DNA from: a virus
Strand: one strand, 5' to 3'
DNA length: 25,043 nt
IMG/VR virus record: IMGVR_UViG_3300013126_004392
Span: 1 to 25,043 of that record
This document shows positions 2,502 through 23,796 of this stretch, one piece after another (position 1 is the first letter of the stretch; each line of letters opens with the position of its first letter). The notes beneath the pieces are model-generated. The model made no database searches and was not told where the DNA came from. It saw only the letters and a list, made by a program, of their open reading frames with translations. The position numbers and the translations under genes are program-made.

Positions 2502-3473
2502 TCAATCTTCCCCAAACATGTCAAATAAATCAGTTTGAATCTCTTTACCGATTTCTGGCAACGACCAACCAATTGCCTCGTAAAGACGTTCCGTTGGTTG
2601 AGTAACCAATTTTGAAAACATTTTATCCCAGTCAATCTTTATATTGAATTCCTCAGGAAGTTCGGAAACATAAGTTATAGCATCTAGTCCGTATTTGTTT
2701 TTTGCGCAGTAAAGTTTCTTTACCTTTTGTCCAGCTTGAACCGCTTCGTATCTATCATCTAGCTTGAGCTCTTTAATGAGAATATTATAAGCTATGGCTC
2801 CCTTAACATGTGAGGGAGTTTTGTTTTGAAATTTATAAAGCGAAGCTCCTTCTGAATATTTTTCTAAATTATTAATTGAAGTTCTAGCAGCAATATCGTT
2901 CGGATCTAGTTTTTGGAAGCAGTCATAGCTTTTTCGATATACCTCATTTGTTTCTTTAAAATTTTGAGTAAGCAATGCCGTCTTAATGATGTTTTCAATA
3001 AATTTTTTGACTTTTTTGGGAGTTGTCGAACGAGCTAGCTCAATGCCTGTGTATTTAAATTTGTCTACACTGACTCCTTCTTCATCCAAGACGTGCAATA
3101 TGTAACGTTTTTTCTGCAAAAAGATTCCGACGTCTGCAATTACCTCTCTTTTAAAGACGTATCTCGGATCTACAGAAAATAATTCTTTCCTAGCCCATTC
3201 AAGAATTTCTGTATTGACATGTTTGTCTAGCTTGTCTACAATTTCATGAACTTTGGGATTTACTTCATTTTTTATTAATAAAGGAATTTGTAGTTTGTCC
3301 AACAATGGTTGGATAGAAACATAAAGTGAATTGTGAATTAATACATCGTTTGCAAAAAACGTGTGTTCTGTATCGTCAGACATTTCTATGTCGTACACAT
3401 ACTCATCGTCAAAATCCCCTATACATTCTACCTTTTCTATATCAACTATTTTGTAATTAAAACCGTTATTCAT
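2502..3473 (-). CDS. 43: C-intein + DNA polymerase gp43 C-terminal half (split gene)
   Basis: A 323-residue fusion. Residues 1-48 are a C-intein ending VLIHN. From Ser49 the sequence (SLYVSIQPLL) continues the polymerase palm right after the YGDTD of the other half, then runs through the thumb. Family B features include TPSHVKGAIAYN, similar to the T4 thumb, and KNKYGLDAIT. The C-terminus is LFDMFGED, nearly the clamp-binding tail of RB69 gp43, so the joined enzyme should bind the sliding clamp. The 275-residue C-extein plus the 577-residue N-extein gives about 852 residues, close to T4 gp43 (898). Alone, this half lacks the exonuclease, motifs A and B, and the catalytic aspartates. The start ATG overlaps the endonuclease stop as ATGAATAA, so translation is probably coupled to that gene. 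Confidence 0.95.
   Translation of the reverse strand: MNNGFNYKIVDIEKVECIGDFDDEYVYDIEMSDDTEHTFFANDVLIHNSLYVSIQPLLDKLQIPLLIKNEVNPKVHEIVDKLDKHVNTEILEWARKELFSVDPRYVFKREVIADVGIFLQKKRYILHVLDEEGVSVDKFKYTGIELARSTTPKKVKKFIENIIKTALLTQNFKETNEVYRKSYDCFQKLDPNDIAARTSINNLEKYSEGASLYKFQNKTPSHVKGAIAYNILIKELKLDDRYEAVQAGQKVKKLYCAKNKYGLDAITYVSELPEEFNIKIDWDKMFSKLVTQPTERLYEAIGWSLPEIGKEIQTDLFDMFGED
3330..3473 (-). other. C-intein (IntC) of split gp43 intein
   Basis: Forty-eight codons encode the C-terminal intein fragment. A strand (YKIVDIEKVECIGD) leads into block F (YVYDIEMSDDTEHTFFANDV). Block G, VLIHN, holds the penultimate His47 and terminal Asn48, which cyclises during splicing. The +1 residue is Ser49, the first residue of the C-extein. 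All residues needed for the C-terminal splicing steps are present. The fragment is very acidic: 13 acidic against 2 basic residues by my count. Confidence 0.94.
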
Positions 3474-4488
3474 TTAAAAAATCTATACATTGTTTGATAA
3501 TTTGTTCTTTATTCTCTATAAAGTCACTTTCCCAAATTAACAAAACTTTACAACCAAATTCATTGCTTAGCGTTTTATTTCTGTTTAATGTATTTTCAAA
3601 TAATGCTTGCGCAGTAGCTTTTGCTTGAGGATTGTAAAAACCAGGTTTGTATTTTTTAGGATTTCCGTGCCAGTAGTCTCCAGCAAACTCAATGACTTTA
3701 TTTGAAAAGGCACAATAAAAATCTACAAACATCGTTTTATAACCTTTTTTTGCAAAAAAATATTCATAGTTTTTTGAATCAAAAAACACGCTAGCTCGTC
3801 TCTCTATAGACAACAACTCATCGACTTTTTCAAATAATTGATTTGCTAAATTAGATTGTCTCCGATAACGAGCTTTTTGTTTAGCCAGACTTTCCCATTT
3901 TTCTTTGCCTATAATTTCTCCGTATCTTTGAACAAAGGTATCTAGCGTATTAACTTTTCGATTGCAAACTTCTTTAAATTTTTTTGTTCCTTCGACAGTT
4001 CCGTATTTTTCTATGAAATACTCTTGGGTTACACCTGCATAGCTTTGTCTTCGTCGATAATCGTCCCATTTTTTTGAGCCAATGTCATCTCCGTGACGTT
4101 TAATAAAGTTTTGCTTTGTAGAGGCTCTGGTGTTGTTATAGAGGTCGTATTGTTCTTTTGTCCAGCCGTATTTTTTATGTTTGTATTCAAAGCTATTCGA
4201 GTAAGCTTGTTTTTGTTTGTATTGATCCCACCTTTTATTACCTTCTAATTCTCCGTATTTTTTTATAAAGTTTTTTAAAGTTACTTTTCTGAGCTCTATA
4301 ACATTTTTACAATACAGCTGTTCCTTGCTTGTTTTATGTTTTGCAACGTATTGTTTTAGTGTCATGCCATGAGAGTGTTTAAGATGGGTGTGAGTTATTT
4401 GAGGATGCAGTGTATTGCACTCCAAACAAACAACGAACGTATTTTGATCGTTCTTATCTACTTTAGTAAGAGTTTTTTTGCTTTGCAT
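3466..4488 (-). CDS. Free-standing homing endonuclease, Vsr-like (EDxHD type), nested in split gp43
   Basis: A 340-residue putative site-specific endonuclease. The N-terminus has a MucR/Ros-type zinc finger: Cys21 and Cys24 (CLEC), then HLKHSHGMT with His35 and His40. Next come four repeats of the form FIKKYG...G..KW at about residues 74-90, 128-144, 158-171 and 185-198, probably DNA-contacting. The C-terminal domain (about 240-335) is Vsr-like, with VDFYC (Asp256), IEFAGDYWHGNP (Glu267, Asp271, His274) and a final VLLIWESDF. This resembles the EDxHD homing endonucleases reported inside fractured, split-intein genes of environmental phages. It lies exactly between the two polymerase halves. 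A hairpin precedes it, and its stop overlaps the C-half start by eight bases. The likely target is an uninterrupted gene 43 allele at the YGDTDS codons. That is inferred, not seen. Confidence 0.88.
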   Translation of the reverse strand: MQSKKTLTKVDKNDQNTFVVCLECNTLHPQITHTHLKHSHGMTLKQYVAKHKTSKEQLYCKNVIELRKVTLKNFIKKYGELEGNKRWDQYKQKQAYSNSFEYKHKKYGWTKEQYDLYNNTRASTKQNFIKRHGDDIGSKKWDDYRRRQSYAGVTQEYFIEKYGTVEGTKKFKEVCNRKVNTLDTFVQRYGEIIGKEKWESLAKQKARYRRQSNLANQLFEKVDELLSIERRASVFFDSKNYEYFFAKKGYKTMFVDFYCAFSNKVIEFAGDYWHGNPKKYKPGFYNPQAKATAQALFENTLNRNKTLSNEFGCKVLLIWESDFIENKEQIIKQCIDFLNE

Positions 4489-4498
4489 AAGTATACTT
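4489..4498. other. Perfect 10-bp palindrome abutting the endonuclease start
   Basis: AAGTATACTT is its own reverse complement and ends one base before the endonuclease ATG. Because no good Shine-Dalgarno sequence is visible there, folding of this stretch could hide the ribosome-binding region, or it could be a protein-binding site. It may also be chance: the core GTATAC recurs elsewhere in the window, including in coding sequence. Confidence 0.35.
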
Positions 4499-4503
4499 AG
4501 GCT

Positions 4504-4526
4504 GACACAGCTTATTTTGCTGTGTC
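4504..4526 (-). promoter_or_regulatory. Perfect 8-bp stem-loop between gp43 N-half and the endonuclease
   Basis: On the minus strand GACACAGC pairs without mismatch with GCTGTGTC around a 7-base A-rich loop. It starts 10 bases past the stop of the polymerase N-half and ends 15 bases before the endonuclease ATG. No run of T follows, so it is not a standard terminator. In T4, hairpins upstream of free-standing homing endonucleases are known to limit their translation from early read-through transcripts. A similar role, or mRNA 3' end protection for the N-half, is plausible here. A seven-codon ORF (MYRDTAK) overlaps the upstream arm. Confidence 0.6.
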
Positions 4527-4535
4527 GCGATACAT

Positions 4536-6629
4536 TTATTGCAAAACGACCATTTTGTCTGTTGCTGCATTAATATCAGCTGGAGCAACTCTAAGAAGTT
4601 TCCCGTTCCTCAATACCATACATCCATGATCTTCTGTCATAATCACCTCTTTACCATCTGCTACAATTTTATATTTCTTCTTAGAAACTTTGTGACGTAT
4701 GATGTTTTTTACGTTGCCCCAGTTTACGTAATTCTCTTTGGAGTAAAAAGTTGGAACTTTTAGTTGTTTGTCTTGAATGTCGATAATTTCGTGTCCATTA
4801 AAGGTAAAAAACTTTTTAGAGTTTTTGAAGTTTTCGTATAAAGTTTCAATAGGTAAAGAACCTAGATTTGTTCGAATGATCGTGTCTCCAACCACAGAAT
4901 CTGTATCACCGTATTTGGTTATCGTTTGGTCAATGCCATATTTAGCTTTAACAAAATTATCAATAATATGACCACCTGCTTTAGAAACGTTTTGTCCTGT
5001 AACCGTAATAGAGGTGGCGTGATCAATATCCATCAAAGATGAGTGTTTGTTTGCAAACGTTCCATAGATGGAATTCAAAAGAATCTTTAACGTATACTGC
5101 AATGTATCGCAATAGGTAATTTTTAATTGATGAGATCTATCATTTTTGTTTTTAGATTTTTTGAGTTTAGTTAGCTCTTGTTTGGTTTTTACTCGTTCGT
5201 TGTAAATTTCATCGATCAAGTTAGGGATCACGCCTTTAGTTTTTTGGGAATATAAAACACCAGCCTTTGATAAGGATATTTGTTCTTTTGTTAAGAACGT
5301 TTTGAATTTATCTGACGTTAAAGTATGAGTTTTTCCGTTTATCAACCTAATGGTTAGCTCTCCGGAAAAGTTTTCGAAATCTCCAGAAATAACTTTTCCA
5401 ATTTTTGTCTCTGGAGAAATGTTTAGAGTAATAATTGTATTTGGATATAGGGAATTTACGTCAAAACTTACAACAGCTTTTTGTAAGCCTTTTTCGGGAT
5501 CTCTAACATATCCTCCTTCATATGATTCTCTTTCCATGTTATTAGGAAAAGTAGGAATTACATACCCTTGTTTAGACGCTTGAATAGCAACTGCCCCTGT
5601 AACAATCGCTACCTTTCCAAGTGCTGCTTCAAAATTTGTACAGCCTTTATAAGCAAGCATTCGAGCAATTTCCAAAAATTTTAACTTTTCTTCTAATTTA
5701 ACAAGCAAGTGCACGTCTTGAATGTTGTAATCTACAAAAGTTTTCCAATCACTTGCTGCAAGCTCTCCGAGACTGACTGCATTGTAAGCAGTTTTTCCCT
5801 CTCCGAGCTCTAATTCTGATATATAGTTTAAACTAAAAGATTCTTTCTCTCCTGGAGAAAAAGTTTTATACAAATCCATGTAGTCCAATAACGAAACTCC
5901 TTGAATAGACCAGATGGTTACTTCTTTACCCATGTCAGTAAACACTTTTCTCCCTCTAACATTACCTATAGGAGAAAGCTGTCGTATAAAATCATCGCCA
6001 AAAATCCTCATAAACCGATTAATAATATAAGGAAAGTCAAAATTTTGAGAGTTCCAACCGGATGCAATATCTGGATAATCTGATTTCCAGAAATCTACAA
6101 ATTGCAAAATTAAATCTTCTTCGTCTTTACAATAGTGATATACACAATCAGGTATTGTTGGGGTATATCTTTGTTTCAAACCCCAAGTATGAGTTGCCTT
6201 AGTCAAAGTATCATAGACAGTGATTAAGTTAATTGGTACAGCTGCTTTTTCGGGAGTAGGAAACGCAGAATCGACTGTGGTGTCTACTTCAATATCAAGC
6301 AAAAATATCTTTAATGGATGTTTTGAAAACTCAGGTTTGTTATTTTGATCTCTATACATTTCGATCAAAAATTGTTGTTCAGGAGCCAAATTGTGAAATA
6401 TACGTTTATTGGCTGTTGAGTCTACAAACTTCCTTCGCTCCATTGAGTTTTTAAACTGTTTTTTTACTAAAGAAGTCTTAAAAATAGATGTTGCGTCTTC
6501 TGCTCCTTCTTTTTCCAAAAACAAGTAAGGTCTGAAAGGAATTTCTGTTTCTATACGAACGCCTTCTTCTGACCATGTACGAAGAAAAACTGATTCGTTA
6601 AATGGATTATAACTTGCAGATCGATACAT
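4536..6629 (-). CDS. 43: DNA polymerase gp43 N-terminal half + N-intein (split gene)
   Basis: A 697-residue fusion: the first 577 residues of a family B replicative polymerase, then a 120-residue N-intein. The 3'-5' exonuclease motifs are present: Exo I LDIEVD (Asp112, Glu114), Exo II GWNSQNFDFPYI (191-202) and Exo III YNIQD (301-305). Polymerase motif A is FDVNSLYPN (389-397), motif B is KILLNSIYG (515-523), and motif C is cut after YGDTD (573-577). It therefore cannot be active without the SLYVSIQ half encoded at 2502-3473. Both halves keep every expected motif, which argues for function rather than decay. The start ATG at 6629 has only a weak upstream GGG. A 5-bp inverted repeat (ACTCA/TGAGT) precedes it, where T4 has its gp43 translational operator. 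It follows a glycosyltransferase gene by 30 bases. Confidence 0.96.
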   Translation of the reverse strand: MYRSASYNPFNESVFLRTWSEEGVRIETEIPFRPYLFLEKEGAEDATSIFKTSLVKKQFKNSMERRKFVDSTANKRIFHNLAPEQQFLIEMYRDQNNKPEFSKHPLKIFLLDIEVDTTVDSAFPTPEKAAVPINLITVYDTLTKATHTWGLKQRYTPTIPDCVYHYCKDEEDLILQFVDFWKSDYPDIASGWNSQNFDFPYIINRFMRIFGDDFIRQLSPIGNVRGRKVFTDMGKEVTIWSIQGVSLLDYMDLYKTFSPGEKESFSLNYISELELGEGKTAYNAVSLGELAASDWKTFVDYNIQDVHLLVKLEEKLKFLEIARMLAYKGCTNFEAALGKVAIVTGAVAIQASKQGYVIPTFPNNMERESYEGGYVRDPEKGLQKAVVSFDVNSLYPNTIITLNISPETKIGKVISGDFENFSGELTIRLINGKTHTLTSDKFKTFLTKEQISLSKAGVLYSQKTKGVIPNLIDEIYNERVKTKQELTKLKKSKNKNDRSHQLKITYCDTLQYTLKILLNSIYGTFANKHSSLMDIDHATSITVTGQNVSKAGGHIIDNFVKAKYGIDQTITKYGDTDSVVGDTIIRTNLGSLPIETLYENFKNSKKFFTFNGHEIIDIQDKQLKVPTFYSKENYVNWGNVKNIIRHKVSKKKYKIVADGKEVIMTEDHGCMVLRNGKLLRVAPADINAATDKMVVLQ
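4539..4898 (-). other. N-intein (IntN) of split gp43 intein
   Basis: One hundred and twenty codons from Ser578 to the stop. Block A is SVVGDTIIRTNLG, with Ser1 as the nucleophile. Block B is GKEVIMTEDHGCMVL, with the TxxH residues Thr88 and His91. The fragment ends after LRVAPADINAATDKMVV, the usual place where an endonuclease domain or a natural split begins. The inserted position is inside polymerase motif C (YGDTD|S), the site called pol-c in archaeal family B inteins. The fragment is net basic (about +6), opposite to the acidic IntC. Confidence 0.94.
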
Positions 6630-7925: not shown

Positions 7926-9722
7926 CTACGGTTGGATCGTAGAAATGCCATTCCTTTTAATGACGTGTATAGTATGTTCTGCTTTAGTAGTTACTTCTGG
8001 ACCTCTGTGAGTAATAATATAACAAGACTCGTTGTTCTCGTTATATCTTTCTCTCAAAACTCTTAAAGTAAGATAAACTCCTTTATCATCTAAAGAAGAA
8101 TCCAGTAATTCGTCATAAAATACTGTACTAAAGTTTACGTCTCCTTGTAAACGCCTTATGTCTGCAAAAGCAAATAAACACGCAAGATCTATTCTTTTCC
8201 GTTCTCCTCCAGAAAAATTAAAGTAGGATTTCGGGTTGGCATTTTCATCGATTATTTCTTCGTCGAAAAATTCATTAAACTGACACAGGCAATTAGCTTC
8301 TAATTTTTTAAGATATAAAGCAATCTGAGAATTTAGTACTTTAAGAATTTTTTTAACAATAAATGATTTAATCCCTTCTTCGGAAATAACAAACTTTACT
8401 GTTTCAAGAATATTTAATTCGTTGTTGAGTTTGTCCACGTTGGCATTTGATTGCTCCACATTGGTTTTTAAAGCACTAACTTTACCTTTTAATTCGTTGT
8501 TCTGCTCTTTAGAGGCAACGGTTAACTCATCATTCGTTTCTTTTATGTGTTTTGAAATAAAAGCAATGCTAGTTTGTATGTGAGCGTTATCAGCAACTTG
8601 TTGTTGATATTGAGCTTTTTTGGCCTCTTCCTCTTTAATTGTCTGTTTTAATGACTCTATTTCTGTAATTCCTGATGTCTTTGTTTCTTCTAACTTGGAT
8701 ATTACTTTGTTGTACTTTTTGATCGAACTTTCGTGTTTAGTAATTAGCCCATTTACATGATCTACGTGATCTGTGGAATAAGTTCGCGAGCAAGTAGGAC
8801 AAGAGTCTTTATTTGTTTGAAGGCTTTTGATTTGCTTGGTTTCTGAATTAATCTCCGCTTGAGCTTGAAATATGCTTTTTTCGATTTGTTGCAATTTAGC
8901 ATGCAATTGTTCCAAGTTTGTTTTGTACAAATCGAGCTGTTGATCAGAACAAGACAAATCTCTAGTTCCAGTCGAAACTAGCTTTGTTTGCAAATGCATT
9001 AGATCGTTTTCGAGATTGATTTTTTTAGTTTTCAATTTTTCAATACGTTCTTGAGCAATACTTTCGTAGTTGTCTAGTTGAGTTTGATTGAAAACAAGCT
9101 CGTTTTGTTGTTGTTCAAGTTTAGTATATGCTATTTCGTAATCTTTTTTAGCAATGCTGTAATCATCTCGAGCCTTTAAAACCATTTCCGTAAAAACTTC
9201 CATACCCAACACACTCTCAATAAACTTACGCTTATCTGTTTTTGGCAATGCCATAAACGGCAATGCATTATTGATGGACATTATTACGGAATTTTGAAAA
9301 ACAGTAGAAGGCGTTCGAATAATTTGCTGAATTAGATTATTTGTTTTGACTAAAGTTGACCGAGTTATTTCTTCTCCGTTTTTGAAAAGCTGACACTTCG
9401 TCGGATTTAGTTTTCTTTGAATTTCATAAGAATCAATTATGTTATTGTAAAGTACGTCAAAAGTCAAAGACACTTCGCACTTGCCTTTAGTTAAACTGTT
9501 TTGTACATGATCTTTAGAAATTTCTCTAAGAGTTGCACCATACAAGGCATAGTATAAAAGCTCCGTAACAGAACTTTTGCCAGCACCGTTTTTTGAATCT
9601 TCTTTATCGAAATTTGTACCGACTATTGCATTTACTCCTGCTTTTAATTCAATTTTTACTGGACTGTTGCCGAACGACAAAAAGTTTTTGCCTTCGAGCG
9701 TTTTAAACGTAATAACTTTCAT
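7926..9722 (-). CDS. 46: Recombination endonuclease subunit gp46 (SbcC/Rad50-like)
   Basis: SMC-like ATPase partner of gp47. The complex resects DNA ends to start recombination-dependent replication and degrades host DNA. The N-terminal ATPase half has NFLSFGNSP and a P-loop ending NGAGKS (45-50). It is stretched by an acidic insert compared with cellular Rad50. Two long glutamine/lysine-rich coiled-coil arms flank the zinc hook CPTC (Cys308, Cys311). The C-terminal half has the ABC signature FSGGE (503-507) and the Walker B motif TVFYDELLD (Asp537, Glu538). All catalytic elements are intact. Length is 598 residues (T4 gp46 is 560). Its usual neighbour gp47 is over 12 kb upstream, across the sugar cluster. 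The start ATG at 9722 follows a six-codon reading frame (MYRGRA) whose TAA overlaps it. Confidence 0.95.
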   Translation of the reverse strand: MKVITFKTLEGKNFLSFGNSPVKIELKAGVNAIVGTNFDKEDSKNGAGKSSVTELLYYALYGATLREISKDHVQNSLTKGKCEVSLTFDVLYNNIIDSYEIQRKLNPTKCQLFKNGEEITRSTLVKTNNLIQQIIRTPSTVFQNSVIMSINNALPFMALPKTDKRKFIESVLGMEVFTEMVLKARDDYSIAKKDYEIAYTKLEQQQNELVFNQTQLDNYESIAQERIEKLKTKKINLENDLMHLQTKLVSTGTRDLSCSDQQLDLYKTNLEQLHAKLQQIEKSIFQAQAEINSETKQIKSLQTNKDSCPTCSRTYSTDHVDHVNGLITKHESSIKKYNKVISKLEETKTSGITEIESLKQTIKEEEAKKAQYQQQVADNAHIQTSIAFISKHIKETNDELTVASKEQNNELKGKVSALKTNVEQSNANVDKLNNELNILETVKFVISEEGIKSFIVKKILKVLNSQIALYLKKLEANCLCQFNEFFDEEIIDENANPKSYFNFSGGERKRIDLACLFAFADIRRLQGDVNFSTVFYDELLDSSLDDKGVYLTLRVLRERYNENNESCYIITHRGPEVTTKAEHTIHVIKRNGISTIQP

Positions 9723-21402: not shown

Positions 21403-22228
21403 TTTTAATCCTTTTCAAAGTTTGTAACACAACATCTTTTGTCGCAAAAGGTGGTTGGTTTGGATAATGTCCGTGAATTTGCTTGTACAATTCCTGTCCT
21501 TTTTTGACATTAAGCATCCATTGATCTGTATTTTTAGATATGGCTGAATTTTGTATTGCGTCTTTATATTCACCGATATAAGTCTCACTATCAGCTATGT
21601 CTGCAAACCACCAAAAAGGTGGGTGGAATCCTGCTTTAATAATTCTATATGTATGCTCTACATGCTCCCAAGCGTTAAAAAAACGTTCGTCAAATAATCC
21701 AACTTTTTCTAAAACAGAATTGTGAAAAAAAGAAAACATACCAGCAACGTGTTCGTACAACGCAATTCTGACAGTTTTATAATCTATAATTAATTTAGGA
21801 TTAGCTTCCGCATCTGTAGATAGTTCATGTCGATTGTGTATATCAAATGTCGTAGTTTGTTTGCGATTAAATGGAGTGCCAGGTCCGTAATTGAAATGTT
21901 TAATATTTGTTTGCTTAGCAGCTTCTATATATACAGAAAACGTTTCTGGCTTTTTAATAATAACATCATCTTCAATTAAAAATATATTTTTGCATGATTT
22001 GTTTAAAAGAAATTGAAGTGCCTTGTTTTTAGTTTTGGCTACACCTAGATTTTTAATATTTTCAATCCATGTTCCTGGAAGTTCTTTTGAATCTGGTAAA
22101 GACTCTCCATCATTAACAACAACCAATTCATCTATATCTTCACAGACGTTTAGATTACCTAAAAGACGCTTTACATAATTGGGCCTATTGCAGGTTATGA
22201 CTCCTACTCCAATTTTTTCTTTATTCAT
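21395..22228 (-). CDS. GT2 glycosyltransferase
   Basis: A 277-residue GT2 enzyme. Motifs in order: GVGVITCNRPNYVKRLL (7-23), ELVVVNDGES (34-43), NLGVAKTKNKAL (60-71), FLIEDDVII (83-91) with the acidic metal site Glu86-Asp88, and FNAWEHVEHTYRI (184-196), a likely catalytic-base segment like that of chondroitin-polymerase-type GT2 domains. The C-terminal helix (DVVLQTLKRIKNG) is basic. It is the first gene of the sugar cluster. Its ATG overlaps the gp47 stop by eight bases (ATGAATAA), so the cluster is fused directly to the T4 core transcript. Confidence 0.86.
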   Translation of the reverse strand: MNKEKIGVGVITCNRPNYVKRLLGNLNVCEDIDELVVVNDGESLPDSKELPGTWIENIKNLGVAKTKNKALQFLLNKSCKNIFLIEDDVIIKKPETFSVYIEAAKQTNIKHFNYGPGTPFNRKQTTTFDIHNRHELSTDAEANPKLIIDYKTVRIALYEHVAGMFSFFHNSVLEKVGLFDERFFNAWEHVEHTYRIIKAGFHPPFWWFADIADSETYIGEYKDAIQNSAISKNTDQWMLNVKKGQELYKQIHGHYPNQPPFATKDVVLQTLKRIKNG

Positions 22229-23297
22229 ATGAAGCTTGACACGATTTATACAGTTCTAAACATTTTTGCAACACTTCTTTTTTAGTGGCATTTGTTTCTA
22301 CATGCTCAACAAACTCGTAAAAGGCAGTTTCAATATCGATTGATAACTTTTTTATGTCTTTTGTCTCACTCTGGACGCTGTCTAAAATATTAAATTCCGT
22401 TCTAAATTGTAAAGGAGAGTGTTGGGAAAGCTTGCTAATTAATAAATCTAAAGTAAGCGTGTCGATTTTTGTATCTACATATAAACTAACAATGTTCCCT
22501 TTAACAATGCTTGAAATATCGCTATATTTTTTTTGAATTAATTCAGAAATTTTAATTCTGTGATGTTTTGGGGTAATACAATTTTCAATAAACTTTACTT
22601 CAAAATTATCAAAATCTATTACAGAAACACCTTTTTGTTGATTTCTGTCTCCAAAATCCATCTCGTAGGGAGATCCCAAATACAAAATAAATTTATCGTC
22701 GTAATTTCTTTGATCTCTGTAATGAAAGTGTCCAGTAATTACCGAGCTAGCTTTCTGTAACAAATCTGTAGAGTTATCACCGTGGTCACAAATTTTAGTT
22801 GCATTCATTTTGAAGTTAGCTATTTCAAAATGGCCTACGAGCATGTCTACTTCTGAAAGTTCTTTTACTATAGTTTTCCAAGGACAAAAAGTAACTAATT
22901 TTTCATTAACTTGTAAAGTAGTAGGCTTTGTATAAACGTGTATATTTTGAGATTGCAAAATTTCTACCGAATTTACCTCAACTGTAGAAGAAAGAAACGC
23001 ATCGTGATTTCCCGGAACAATGTGTATGTCGTACGACTTTAACGTGTCAAAAAACTTTTTTGCTACATGAAGTGTATTGACTCCAATTTCGTGTCTATCA
23101 TGAAAAACATCTCCCGCAAAGAAAATTGTATCTAGCTTGCAATCTTTCATTACCTGATCAATCCACTGCGCCAAATCTAAACAAATTTTGTGCCAGGCTT
23201 GAGAGTTTTGATGAACTCCCAAATGTAGATCAGAGAAGAAAAGTACTTTATTGTTTTTGGGATTAATCTTCAAAATGTCCATTATTGGTGTAGTCAT
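22221..23297 (-). CDS. 47: Recombination endonuclease subunit gp47 (SbcD/Mre11-like)
   Basis: Metallophosphoesterase nuclease partner of gp46. The five conserved motifs are visible: FFSDLHLGVH (Asp23, His25), FAGDVFHDR (Asp63), VPGNHD (Asn97-Asp99), VGHFEI and TGHFHYR, followed by LYLGSP. Length from ATG 23297 is 358 residues (T4 gp47 is 339). The start is uncertain. A GTG lies one codon upstream (23300), and an ATG five codons downstream (23282) would give MDILKINP and shorten the overlap with gp55 from 35 to 20 bases. The end overlaps a GT2 gene rather than gp46. The two subunits are therefore encoded over 12 kb apart but probably on the same strand and transcript class. Confidence 0.95.
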   Translation of the reverse strand: MTTPIMDILKINPKNNKVLFFSDLHLGVHQNSQAWHKICLDLAQWIDQVMKDCKLDTIFFAGDVFHDRHEIGVNTLHVAKKFFDTLKSYDIHIVPGNHDAFLSSTVEVNSVEILQSQNIHVYTKPTTLQVNEKLVTFCPWKTIVKELSEVDMLVGHFEIANFKMNATKICDHGDNSTDLLQKASSVITGHFHYRDQRNYDDKFILYLGSPYEMDFGDRNQQKGVSVIDFDNFEVKFIENCITPKHHRIKISELIQKKYSDISSIVKGNIVSLYVDTKIDTLTLDLLISKLSQHSPLQFRTEFNILDSVQSETKDIKKLSIDIETAFYEFVEHVETNATKKEVLQKCLELYKSCQASYE

Positions 23298-23796
23298 CAC
23301 TAGATCCGTTACGTGTGTTTTTTCTTGAGGGTATTTGACCCGAGCAAACGTGATTTTCGTATGCCTCTTCTTGATATCGTTTTAACGTATCAAAATCTTT
23401 TTTGGACTTTTTAATGCAATTTTGAAATGCGTGATATGCAACTTTTGTAAAATACGAAAAGGGATTATATCCAACACCACATTTAAAACGCTTTCTTCTG
23501 AGAGCTGTCATCATCTTTACGATTGCATCTCCCTGCATTTCGGTTTTAAAGCTGTATGAATAAAAGTTTCTTGCAAGTCCTAATCTAACAGCAATCATTT
23601 GAACCATGGAAGCTAATTTTTCACAAATTATGTCAGTTTCGTAGTAACGCTCAATTAAAGATTCCATTTCGATGGGATCGATGTATACGTCTTTAAGTTC
23701 TTCTTTTGTTCGTCTAACTCGTTTTGGAATAGGTTCTTTTGGTTTAACAATGGCTGTCACTGCTTTCTTTTTTGGTTTCTTTAGAACTTGACTCAT
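23263..23796 (-). CDS. 55: Late-transcription sigma factor gp55
   Basis: A 177-residue counterpart of T4 gp55, the small sigma-70-family factor that directs host RNA polymerase to late promoters together with gp33 and the sliding clamp. The recognisable core is residues 78-130: FYSYSFKTEMQGDAIVKMM, then FKCGVGYNPFSYFTKVAYHAF and NCIKKSKKD. These line up with T4 FSGYTQSWKQEMIADGI, YKNPHAYITQACFNAF and RIKKERKE (sigma region 2). The N-terminal 35 residues are lysine- and arginine-rich, unlike T4. The C-terminal 30 residues are polar and probably disordered, encoded in the overlap with gp47. The start ATG lies 29 bases after the uvsW stop. The length is close to T4 gp55 (185). Confidence 0.9.
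   Translation of the reverse strand: MSQVLKKPKKKAVTAIVKPKEPIPKRVRRTKEELKDVYIDPIEMESLIERYYETDIICEKLASMVQMIAVRLGLARNFYSYSFKTEMQGDAIVKMMTALRRKRFKCGVGYNPFSYFTKVAYHAFQNCIKKSKKDFDTLKRYQEEAYENHVCSGQIPSRKNTRNGSSDDYTNNGHFED

What the first reader, a model, noticed from the sequence alone, without database searches (positions are those of the whole stretch)
2502..6629. DNA polymerase gene 43 fractured by a split intein with a homing endonuclease gene in the break
The N-half ends exactly at YGDTD plus a complete N-intein (blocks A and B, TEDH). The C-half begins with a C-intein ending VLIHN and continues with SLYVSIQ. Joining 577 and 275 residues restores motif C and a full-length gp43 with intact exonuclease, palm, thumb and clamp-binding tail. 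A Vsr-like endonuclease gene occupies the gap. This is the fractured-gene arrangement known for some phage genes such as gp41 and ribonucleotide reductases in environmental sequences, here in the replicative polymerase at its catalytic site. Replication would depend entirely on protein trans-splicing.
Basis: partly seen in the sequence, partly recalled or inferred. Interest (0 to 1): 0.88.

Follow-up and report, generated by a model that had tools for sequence, protein, structure and literature searches.

The report
Split-intein phage DNA polymerase gene
A T4-like phage carries its replicative DNA polymerase in two gene halves that a split intein should rejoin as protein, with a homing-type nuclease gene between them; this arrangement is already known from many phages, and this locus is a clean new example.

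Summary
On the minus strand, 4536-6629 encodes a 577-residue N-extein ending YGDTD plus a 120-residue Ser1 N-intein; 3466-4488 encodes a 340-residue nuclease; 2502-3473 encodes a 48-residue C-intein ending HN plus a 275-residue C-extein. The joined 852 residues match RB69/T4 gp43. The nuclease's C-terminal domain is predicted to have the Vsr / I-Bth0305I fold. The suggestion that the polymerase is a new home for a fractured gene is wrong: the same intein, site and nuclease are annotated in Aeromonas phages (Aes123, Aes508), the arrangement recurs in several other phage groups, and PolB split inteins of this family splice in vitro. I found 120 distinct N-inteins of the family: 95 split with a nuclease, 11 split without one detected, 8 contiguous. 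New here is the allelic picture. The window's polymerase is closest to one with an empty site (92% identical); carriers are scattered among empty polymerases; one carrier is 94-97% identical in flanking DNA to empty relatives; nuclease remnants and apparently re-fused inteins occur. This fits a mobile element that gains, decays and may re-fuse. Splicing and cleavage by this locus are inferred, not shown. New member of a known kind.

The parts
4899..6629 (-). N-extein of the family B DNA polymerase (gp43-like), 577 aa, exonuclease and palm motifs, ending YGDTD
4536..4898 (-). N-intein, 120 aa plus stop codon; Ser1, RH (NX-type motif) at residues 68-69, TEDH (N3/block B)
   Evidence: profile match to the Aes123 PolB1 intein structure 9hth E 2.3e-37
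4489..4535 (-). 47 bp spacer between the N-half stop and the nuclease start, with an 8 bp hairpin (GACACAGC...GCTGTGTC)
   Evidence: similar hairpins only in part of the close relatives; function unknown
3466..4488 (-). Free-standing homing-type endonuclease, 340 aa: N-terminal zinc-finger-like segment (ROS_MUCR match), helical repeats, C-terminal Vsr-like nuclease domain (about 209-340)
3330..3473 (-). C-intein, 48 aa, ...VYDIEMSDDTEHTFFANDVLIHN; its start codon overlaps the nuclease stop by 8 nt
2502..3329 (-). C-extein of the polymerase, 275 aa plus stop, starts SLYVSIQ, ends LFDMFGED

Best explanation
The phage replicative polymerase gene (gene 43) is fractured by a mobile split-intein element of the Aes123 PolB1 family. 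The two halves are translated separately, the N-intein (Ser1) and C-intein (Asn-Ser+1) associate, and an oxyester-type trans-splicing reaction joins D577 to S578 to give an 852-residue gp43. The Vsr-like nuclease between the halves most likely cuts empty alleles of gene 43 so that repair copies nuclease plus split intein into them. Shown here: the anatomy, junction residues, conservation, allelic presence and absence, and predicted nuclease fold. Inferred: that splicing occurs in this phage, that the nuclease cuts the empty site, and the direction of gain versus loss.
For: Exact fit of the halves. Intein profile matches the crystallised Aes123 PolB1 intein; the contiguous relative in L010 is modelled at pLDDT 96.6 with 9hth as best PDB hit. 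Same order and site in named phages. Nuclease domain: 1cw0 Vsr Z 11.1 and homing endonuclease I-Bth0305I Z 10.2. Mobility: the window polymerase is sister to empty-site L007 and groups with empty L008 and L009, while its intein and nuclease group with those of L005, L006 and L003; the 29-row polymerase tree rejects the four intein carriers of that subclade as one clade (p-AU 6e-46). L041 (with element) and L072/L073/L075 (empty) have flanking DNA 94-97% identical; at the join the whole +1 Ser codon (AGC to TCA) is replaced. Many more synonymous than amino-acid-changing differences per site in N-intein, C-intein and nuclease between WIN and L005 (synonymous sites near or at saturation).
Against: No splicing or cleavage assay. 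No flanking co-conversion tract beyond the +1 codon was detected, and none around the window's own site against L007. The window-clade nucleases have Thr300 where most relatives and Vsr have a catalytic-site Asp (D97), so activity of this copy is unproven. A second polymerase outside the 25 kb fragment cannot be excluded.
Confidence: 0.93

Rival explanations
1. The halves work as a two-subunit polymerase without splicing; the intein pieces are relics.
For: Aeromonas phages Aes123 and Aes508 also have gp43 split into 43A and 43B at another place without an intein annotated there.
Against: The break lies inside catalytic motif C, both halves would carry intein tails at the active site, and splice-junction residues are conserved across the family with low amino-acid change.
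Confidence: 0.04
2. The nuclease no longer homes; it persists because its stop codon overlaps the C-half start, so its translation may be coupled to an essential gene.
For: 8 nt overlap in the window and L005; in 85 of 94 distinct loci the C-half start chosen lies within -30 to +3 nt of the nuclease stop, though the script picked the ATG nearest that stop; Thr300 replaces the Vsr D97 equivalent in the window clade; nuclease remnants in L036 and L080.
Against: Carriers in this clade are scattered among empty polymerases, so movement continued; L010 shows the nuclease can be lost with the polymerase frame kept.
Confidence: 0.2
3. Vertical inheritance with many precise losses instead of repeated gains.
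For: Presence/absence on a tree alone gives no direction.
Against: Closest polymerase is empty while the closest intein sits in a more distant polymerase; at least 9 changes over 84 rows.
Confidence: 0.12
4. Assembly artefact joining unrelated pieces.
For: The record is an IMG/VR contig.
Against: Same structure in other contigs and in phage genome records.
Confidence: 0.01

Closest known systems
Aes123 PolB1 split intein in gene 43 of Aeromonas salmonicida phages (JN377899, JN377894; PMC11923092)
   Same: Ser1, Asn-Ser+1, insertion after DTD of motif C, 120 aa N-intein, Vsr-type nuclease gene between the halves
   Different: N-intein about 31-34% identical; Aes123 and Aes508 have an extra intein-free split of gp43, and Aes508 a group I intron; polymerase distant
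Tenacibaculum phage PTm1 fractured polymerase (AP019524)
   Same: Site, split intein, 'VSR endonuclease' in the gap; best named N-intein match by E-value (37%)
   Different: Its polymerase is also broken upstream, with two extra ORFs
Pseudomonas phage MIJ3 / PA5oct split PolB (PMC6892783)
   Same: Split intein after motif C DTD with a nuclease gene between the halves
   Different: The authors call that nuclease HNH; the Vsr-like profile found no match in the gap
Fractured genes with split inteins and a nuclease between (Dassa et al. 2009, cited in PMC6892783; paper not held)
   Same: Split intein plus free-standing nuclease in the break
I-Bth0305I, EDxHD homing endonuclease (3r3p; PMC3943268)
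   Same: Predicted catalytic fold of the nuclease C-terminal domain
   Different: Different DNA-binding part; Thr300 at the position aligned with Vsr D97
pol-c (position III) PolB inteins: Mimivirus and split Nanoarchaeum equitans Pol (PMC549080)
   Same: Intein in polymerase motif C
   Different: pol-c is YGD|TDS; the window's intein is at YGDTD|S, two residues downstream

Membership tests
Cysteine-less (Ser1) PolB split inteins, Aes123 PolB1 type | Ser at intein position 1 and Ser/Thr at +1 | tested here: met
   S1 and S+1 in the window; S1 in 112/112 relatives scored
Cysteine-less (Ser1) PolB split inteins, Aes123 PolB1 type | NX-type His preceded by Arg (PMC10189870) and N3 TxxH | tested here: met
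   RH at residues 68-69, His69 invariant in the alignment; T88, D90, H91 invariant
Cysteine-less (Ser1) PolB split inteins, Aes123 PolB1 type | Terminal HN and block F VYD | tested here: met
Cysteine-less (Ser1) PolB split inteins, Aes123 PolB1 type | HINT fold | tested here: met
   profile to 9hth E 2.3e-37; model of the contiguous relative L010 hits 9hth, TM 0.87
Cysteine-less (Ser1) PolB split inteins, Aes123 PolB1 type | Trans-splicing activity | not testable with these tools
   needs protein expression
Fractured gene with split intein | Host gene broken at the intein with a free-standing nuclease gene in the gap | tested here: met
EDxHD / Vsr-like homing endonucleases | Vsr-like catalytic fold | tested here: met
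   Vsr 1cw0 Z 11.1, rmsd 2.8, 113 aligned; I-Bth0305I 3r3p Z 10.2, rmsd 3.4, 94 aligned. Foldseek E-values weak (0.26 and 0.61 for Vsr)
EDxHD / Vsr-like homing endonucleases | Conserved catalytic residues (Vsr D51, H69, D97) | tested here: inconclusive
   D256 and H274 invariant; D97 equivalent is Thr300 in WIN, L003, L005, L033 and Asp in 26 of 32
EDxHD / Vsr-like homing endonucleases | Site-specific cleavage of the empty allele | not testable with these tools
   needs a cleavage assay
T4 gp43 family B polymerase | Full-length match with motif C restored on joining | tested here: met
pol-c allele inteins | Insertion at YGD|TDS | tested here: not met
   window inserts at YGDTD|S; about 40 relatives of the same family do use YGD|T

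The most novel reading that the evidence does not exclude
Within one phage clade this split intein has been re-fused: L010 (and possibly L037) derives from a fractured, nuclease-bearing ancestor by precise loss of the nuclease, so that a contiguous mini-intein keeps the former C-half start Met. Together with empty sites, nuclease remnants and near-identical empty/occupied pairs, the clade would show a full gain-decay-refusion cycle in an essential replication gene.
Probability: 0.45. Interest if true: 0.5.

Novelty: new member of a known kind. Interest (0 to 1): 0.33.

Why it matters
The locus adds a member with full anatomy to a family whose inteins are used as oxidation-tolerant protein-ligation tools. 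The relatives collected here give matched empty, fractured and contiguous alleles of one essential gene, so one can test how a split-intein element invades, whether its nuclease targets the polymerase active-site codons, and whether splitting is reversible.

Tried and rejected
Co-conversion tract around the window's insertion: binned identity to L007, L008, L009 and L005 shows no switch near the site; gaps make the farther upstream bins meaningless for rows with indels. Ser codon bias at +1 as a general footprint: occupied sites favour TCN, but empty sites also use both codon boxes, so only the L041 pair is used. Spacer hairpin as a general control element: strong in some relatives only, 7 of 18 with z below -2. 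RNA introns or tRNAs in the window: none found. A second intein in the window: none beyond this pair. Sequence-only assignment of the nuclease to Vsr: E 0.13-0.18, not significant; it rests on the predicted structure. dS-based rates: synonymous sites near or at saturation, so only low amino-acid change is claimed. The Dassa 2009 paper is not held and was not read.

Full report
The window is the whole of one IMG/VR record of 25,043 bases. On its minus strand three consecutive reading frames make up the finding: an N-half of 697 residues (4536-6629), a middle ORF of 340 residues (3466-4488) and a C-half of 323 residues (2502-3473). The N-half ends in YGDTD followed by a 120-residue N-intein; the C-half begins with a 48-residue C-intein ending VLIHN and continues SLYVSIQ. 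The two exteins fit one polymerase profile end to end: 18-583 and 581-852 of 856 positions of phrog_262. Joined, they give 852 residues, 97.8 kDa, closest in the PDB to RB69 gp43, with motif C restored.

The intein is of the cysteine-less kind. Position 1 is Ser, the last residue is Asn and +1 is Ser. The invariant columns of the N-intein alignment are S1, H69, T88, D90 and H91. H69 is preceded by Arg, as in the NX motif that PMC10189870 describes for Ser1 inteins. A profile of the family matches the crystal structure of the Aes123 PolB1 intein (9hth) at E 2.3e-37. A contiguous relative (L010; the two window pieces are 71% and 77% identical to it) is predicted with pLDDT 96.6 and has 9hth as its best match, TM 0.87.

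The middle ORF has a ROS_MUCR match near its N-terminus, helical repeats and a C-terminal alpha/beta domain in the model (pLDDT 90.9, pTM 0.47). Residues 209-340 align with Vsr endonuclease (1cw0, Z 11.1, rmsd 2.8 A over 113 residues) and with the homing endonuclease I-Bth0305I (3r3p, Z 10.2). Sequence alone does not reach significance, and Foldseek E-values are weak. D256 and H274, which align with Vsr D51 and H69, are invariant in 32 relatives. The position aligned with Vsr D97 is Asp in 26 of 32, but Thr300 in the window and in L003, L005 and L033. That assignment of D97 uses a residue offset I counted from the printed alignment.

This is not a new arrangement. In the phage collection 49 records match the N-intein. 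Aes123 is annotated as gp43B1 with N-intein, 'putative VSR endonuclease', gp43B2 with C-intein; Aes508 and PTm1 likewise. The MIJ3 paper describes a split PolB with a novel intein and a nuclease between the halves (PMC6892783). Aes123, CP21 and LCGC14 PolB inteins have been studied in vitro as split inteins (PMC11923092, PMC12707363). In IMG/VR, profile searches on the fetched loci, together with the named phages above, give 120 distinct N-inteins: 95 split with a nuclease between, 11 split without a detected nuclease, 8 contiguous, 6 without a C-intein in the stretch held. Some 'no nuclease' cases are merely nucleases the profile misses; MIJ3 is one, since an annotated nuclease sits there. 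The family occupies two adjacent positions, YGDTD|S as in the window and YGD|T as in Mimivirus (PMC549080).

The relatives show how the element behaves. Of 84 polymerases in the window's wider clade, 70 have an empty site, 11 are fractured with a nuclease signal and 3 are contiguous. The window's polymerase is sister to empty L007 (SH-aLRT 95) and groups with empty L008 and L009 (100). Its intein and nuclease instead group with those of L005, L006 and L003. On a 29-row polymerase tree, holding WIN, L003, L005 and L010 together is rejected, p-AU 6e-46 (the group was chosen after seeing the trees). At least 9 changes of state are needed on the 84-row tree. L041 carries the element and its flanking DNA is 93.6-96.8% identical to empty L072, L073 and L075; the empty alleles run straight through the site, and at the join L041 differs in all three bases of the +1 Ser codon. 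This is what a mobile element would leave, but the direction of each change is inferred.

Decay is visible too. L033 and L080 have nearly identical inteins, but L080 keeps only the last 108 residues of the nuclease. L036 keeps a short remnant. L010, L025 and L037 have one open frame through the intein with no nuclease. In L010 the reading ...DEMITMNEDL... keeps a Met aligned with the C-half start Met of the split forms, and its intein falls among split ones (support 92/92 for the set holding WIN, L005, L006 and L010, tree midpoint-rooted). Re-fusion of a split intein is the natural reading but rests on a short alignment.

How it most likely works: the halves are made separately, the intein pieces associate, and trans-splicing ligates D577 to S578. 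This is inferred from the conserved junctions and from characterised relatives; no splicing was observed here. The nuclease most likely promotes spread into empty alleles; its activity and target were not tested, and Thr300 leaves this copy's activity open. Dependence of replication on splicing is likely. Seven phage genome records with this intein (six described as complete) contain only the pieces of one PolB gene, and the 217 kb empty relative has a single PolB, but the window itself is a fragment.

Verdict: observation confirmed, mechanism well supported by homology, novelty not supported. New member of a known kind, interest 0.33, with the matched alleles of its relatives as the part worth following.

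Noticed in passing
window 7926-9722 and 22221-23300: gp46-like and gp47-like recombination subunits are separated by a ~12.5 kb cluster of sugar and nucleotide-sugar enzymes and further ORFs: epimerases, ThDP enzyme, dehydroquinate synthase-like, aldolase-like, DegT aminotransferase, others without a family hit.
   Followed up: partly
L080:7824-8044: A group I intron (Rfam RF00028, 103.8 bits) interrupts the same polymerase gene upstream of the intein, so this gene holds two kinds of splicing element; Aes508 (L121) also has both.
   Followed up: partly
MK250016 (L116), 202073-202462 and 426168-428890: In Prevotella phage Lak-A1 the PolB pieces lie about 224 kb apart: one early piece far from the intein-bearing pieces.
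   Followed up: no
window 4489-4535: The spacer between N-half and nuclease holds an 8 bp hairpin next to the nuclease start; similar hairpins occur in L033, L034 and L005 but not in all relatives.
   Followed up: partly
window 3466-3473: Nuclease stop and C-half start overlap by 8 nt (ATGAATAA), also in L005; may couple C-half translation to the nuclease. Overlaps look common in relatives but the script favoured the nearest ATG.
   Followed up: partly
L041 versus L072, L073, L075: Near-identical viral contigs with and without the element: a natural before/after pair for homing studies.
   Followed up: yes
L117 (Nitratidesulfovibrio phage SRB7757) 6948-8131: Nuclease homologue in a polymerase gap with only a weak N-intein match and no C-intein hit; may be a diverged intein.
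   Followed up: no
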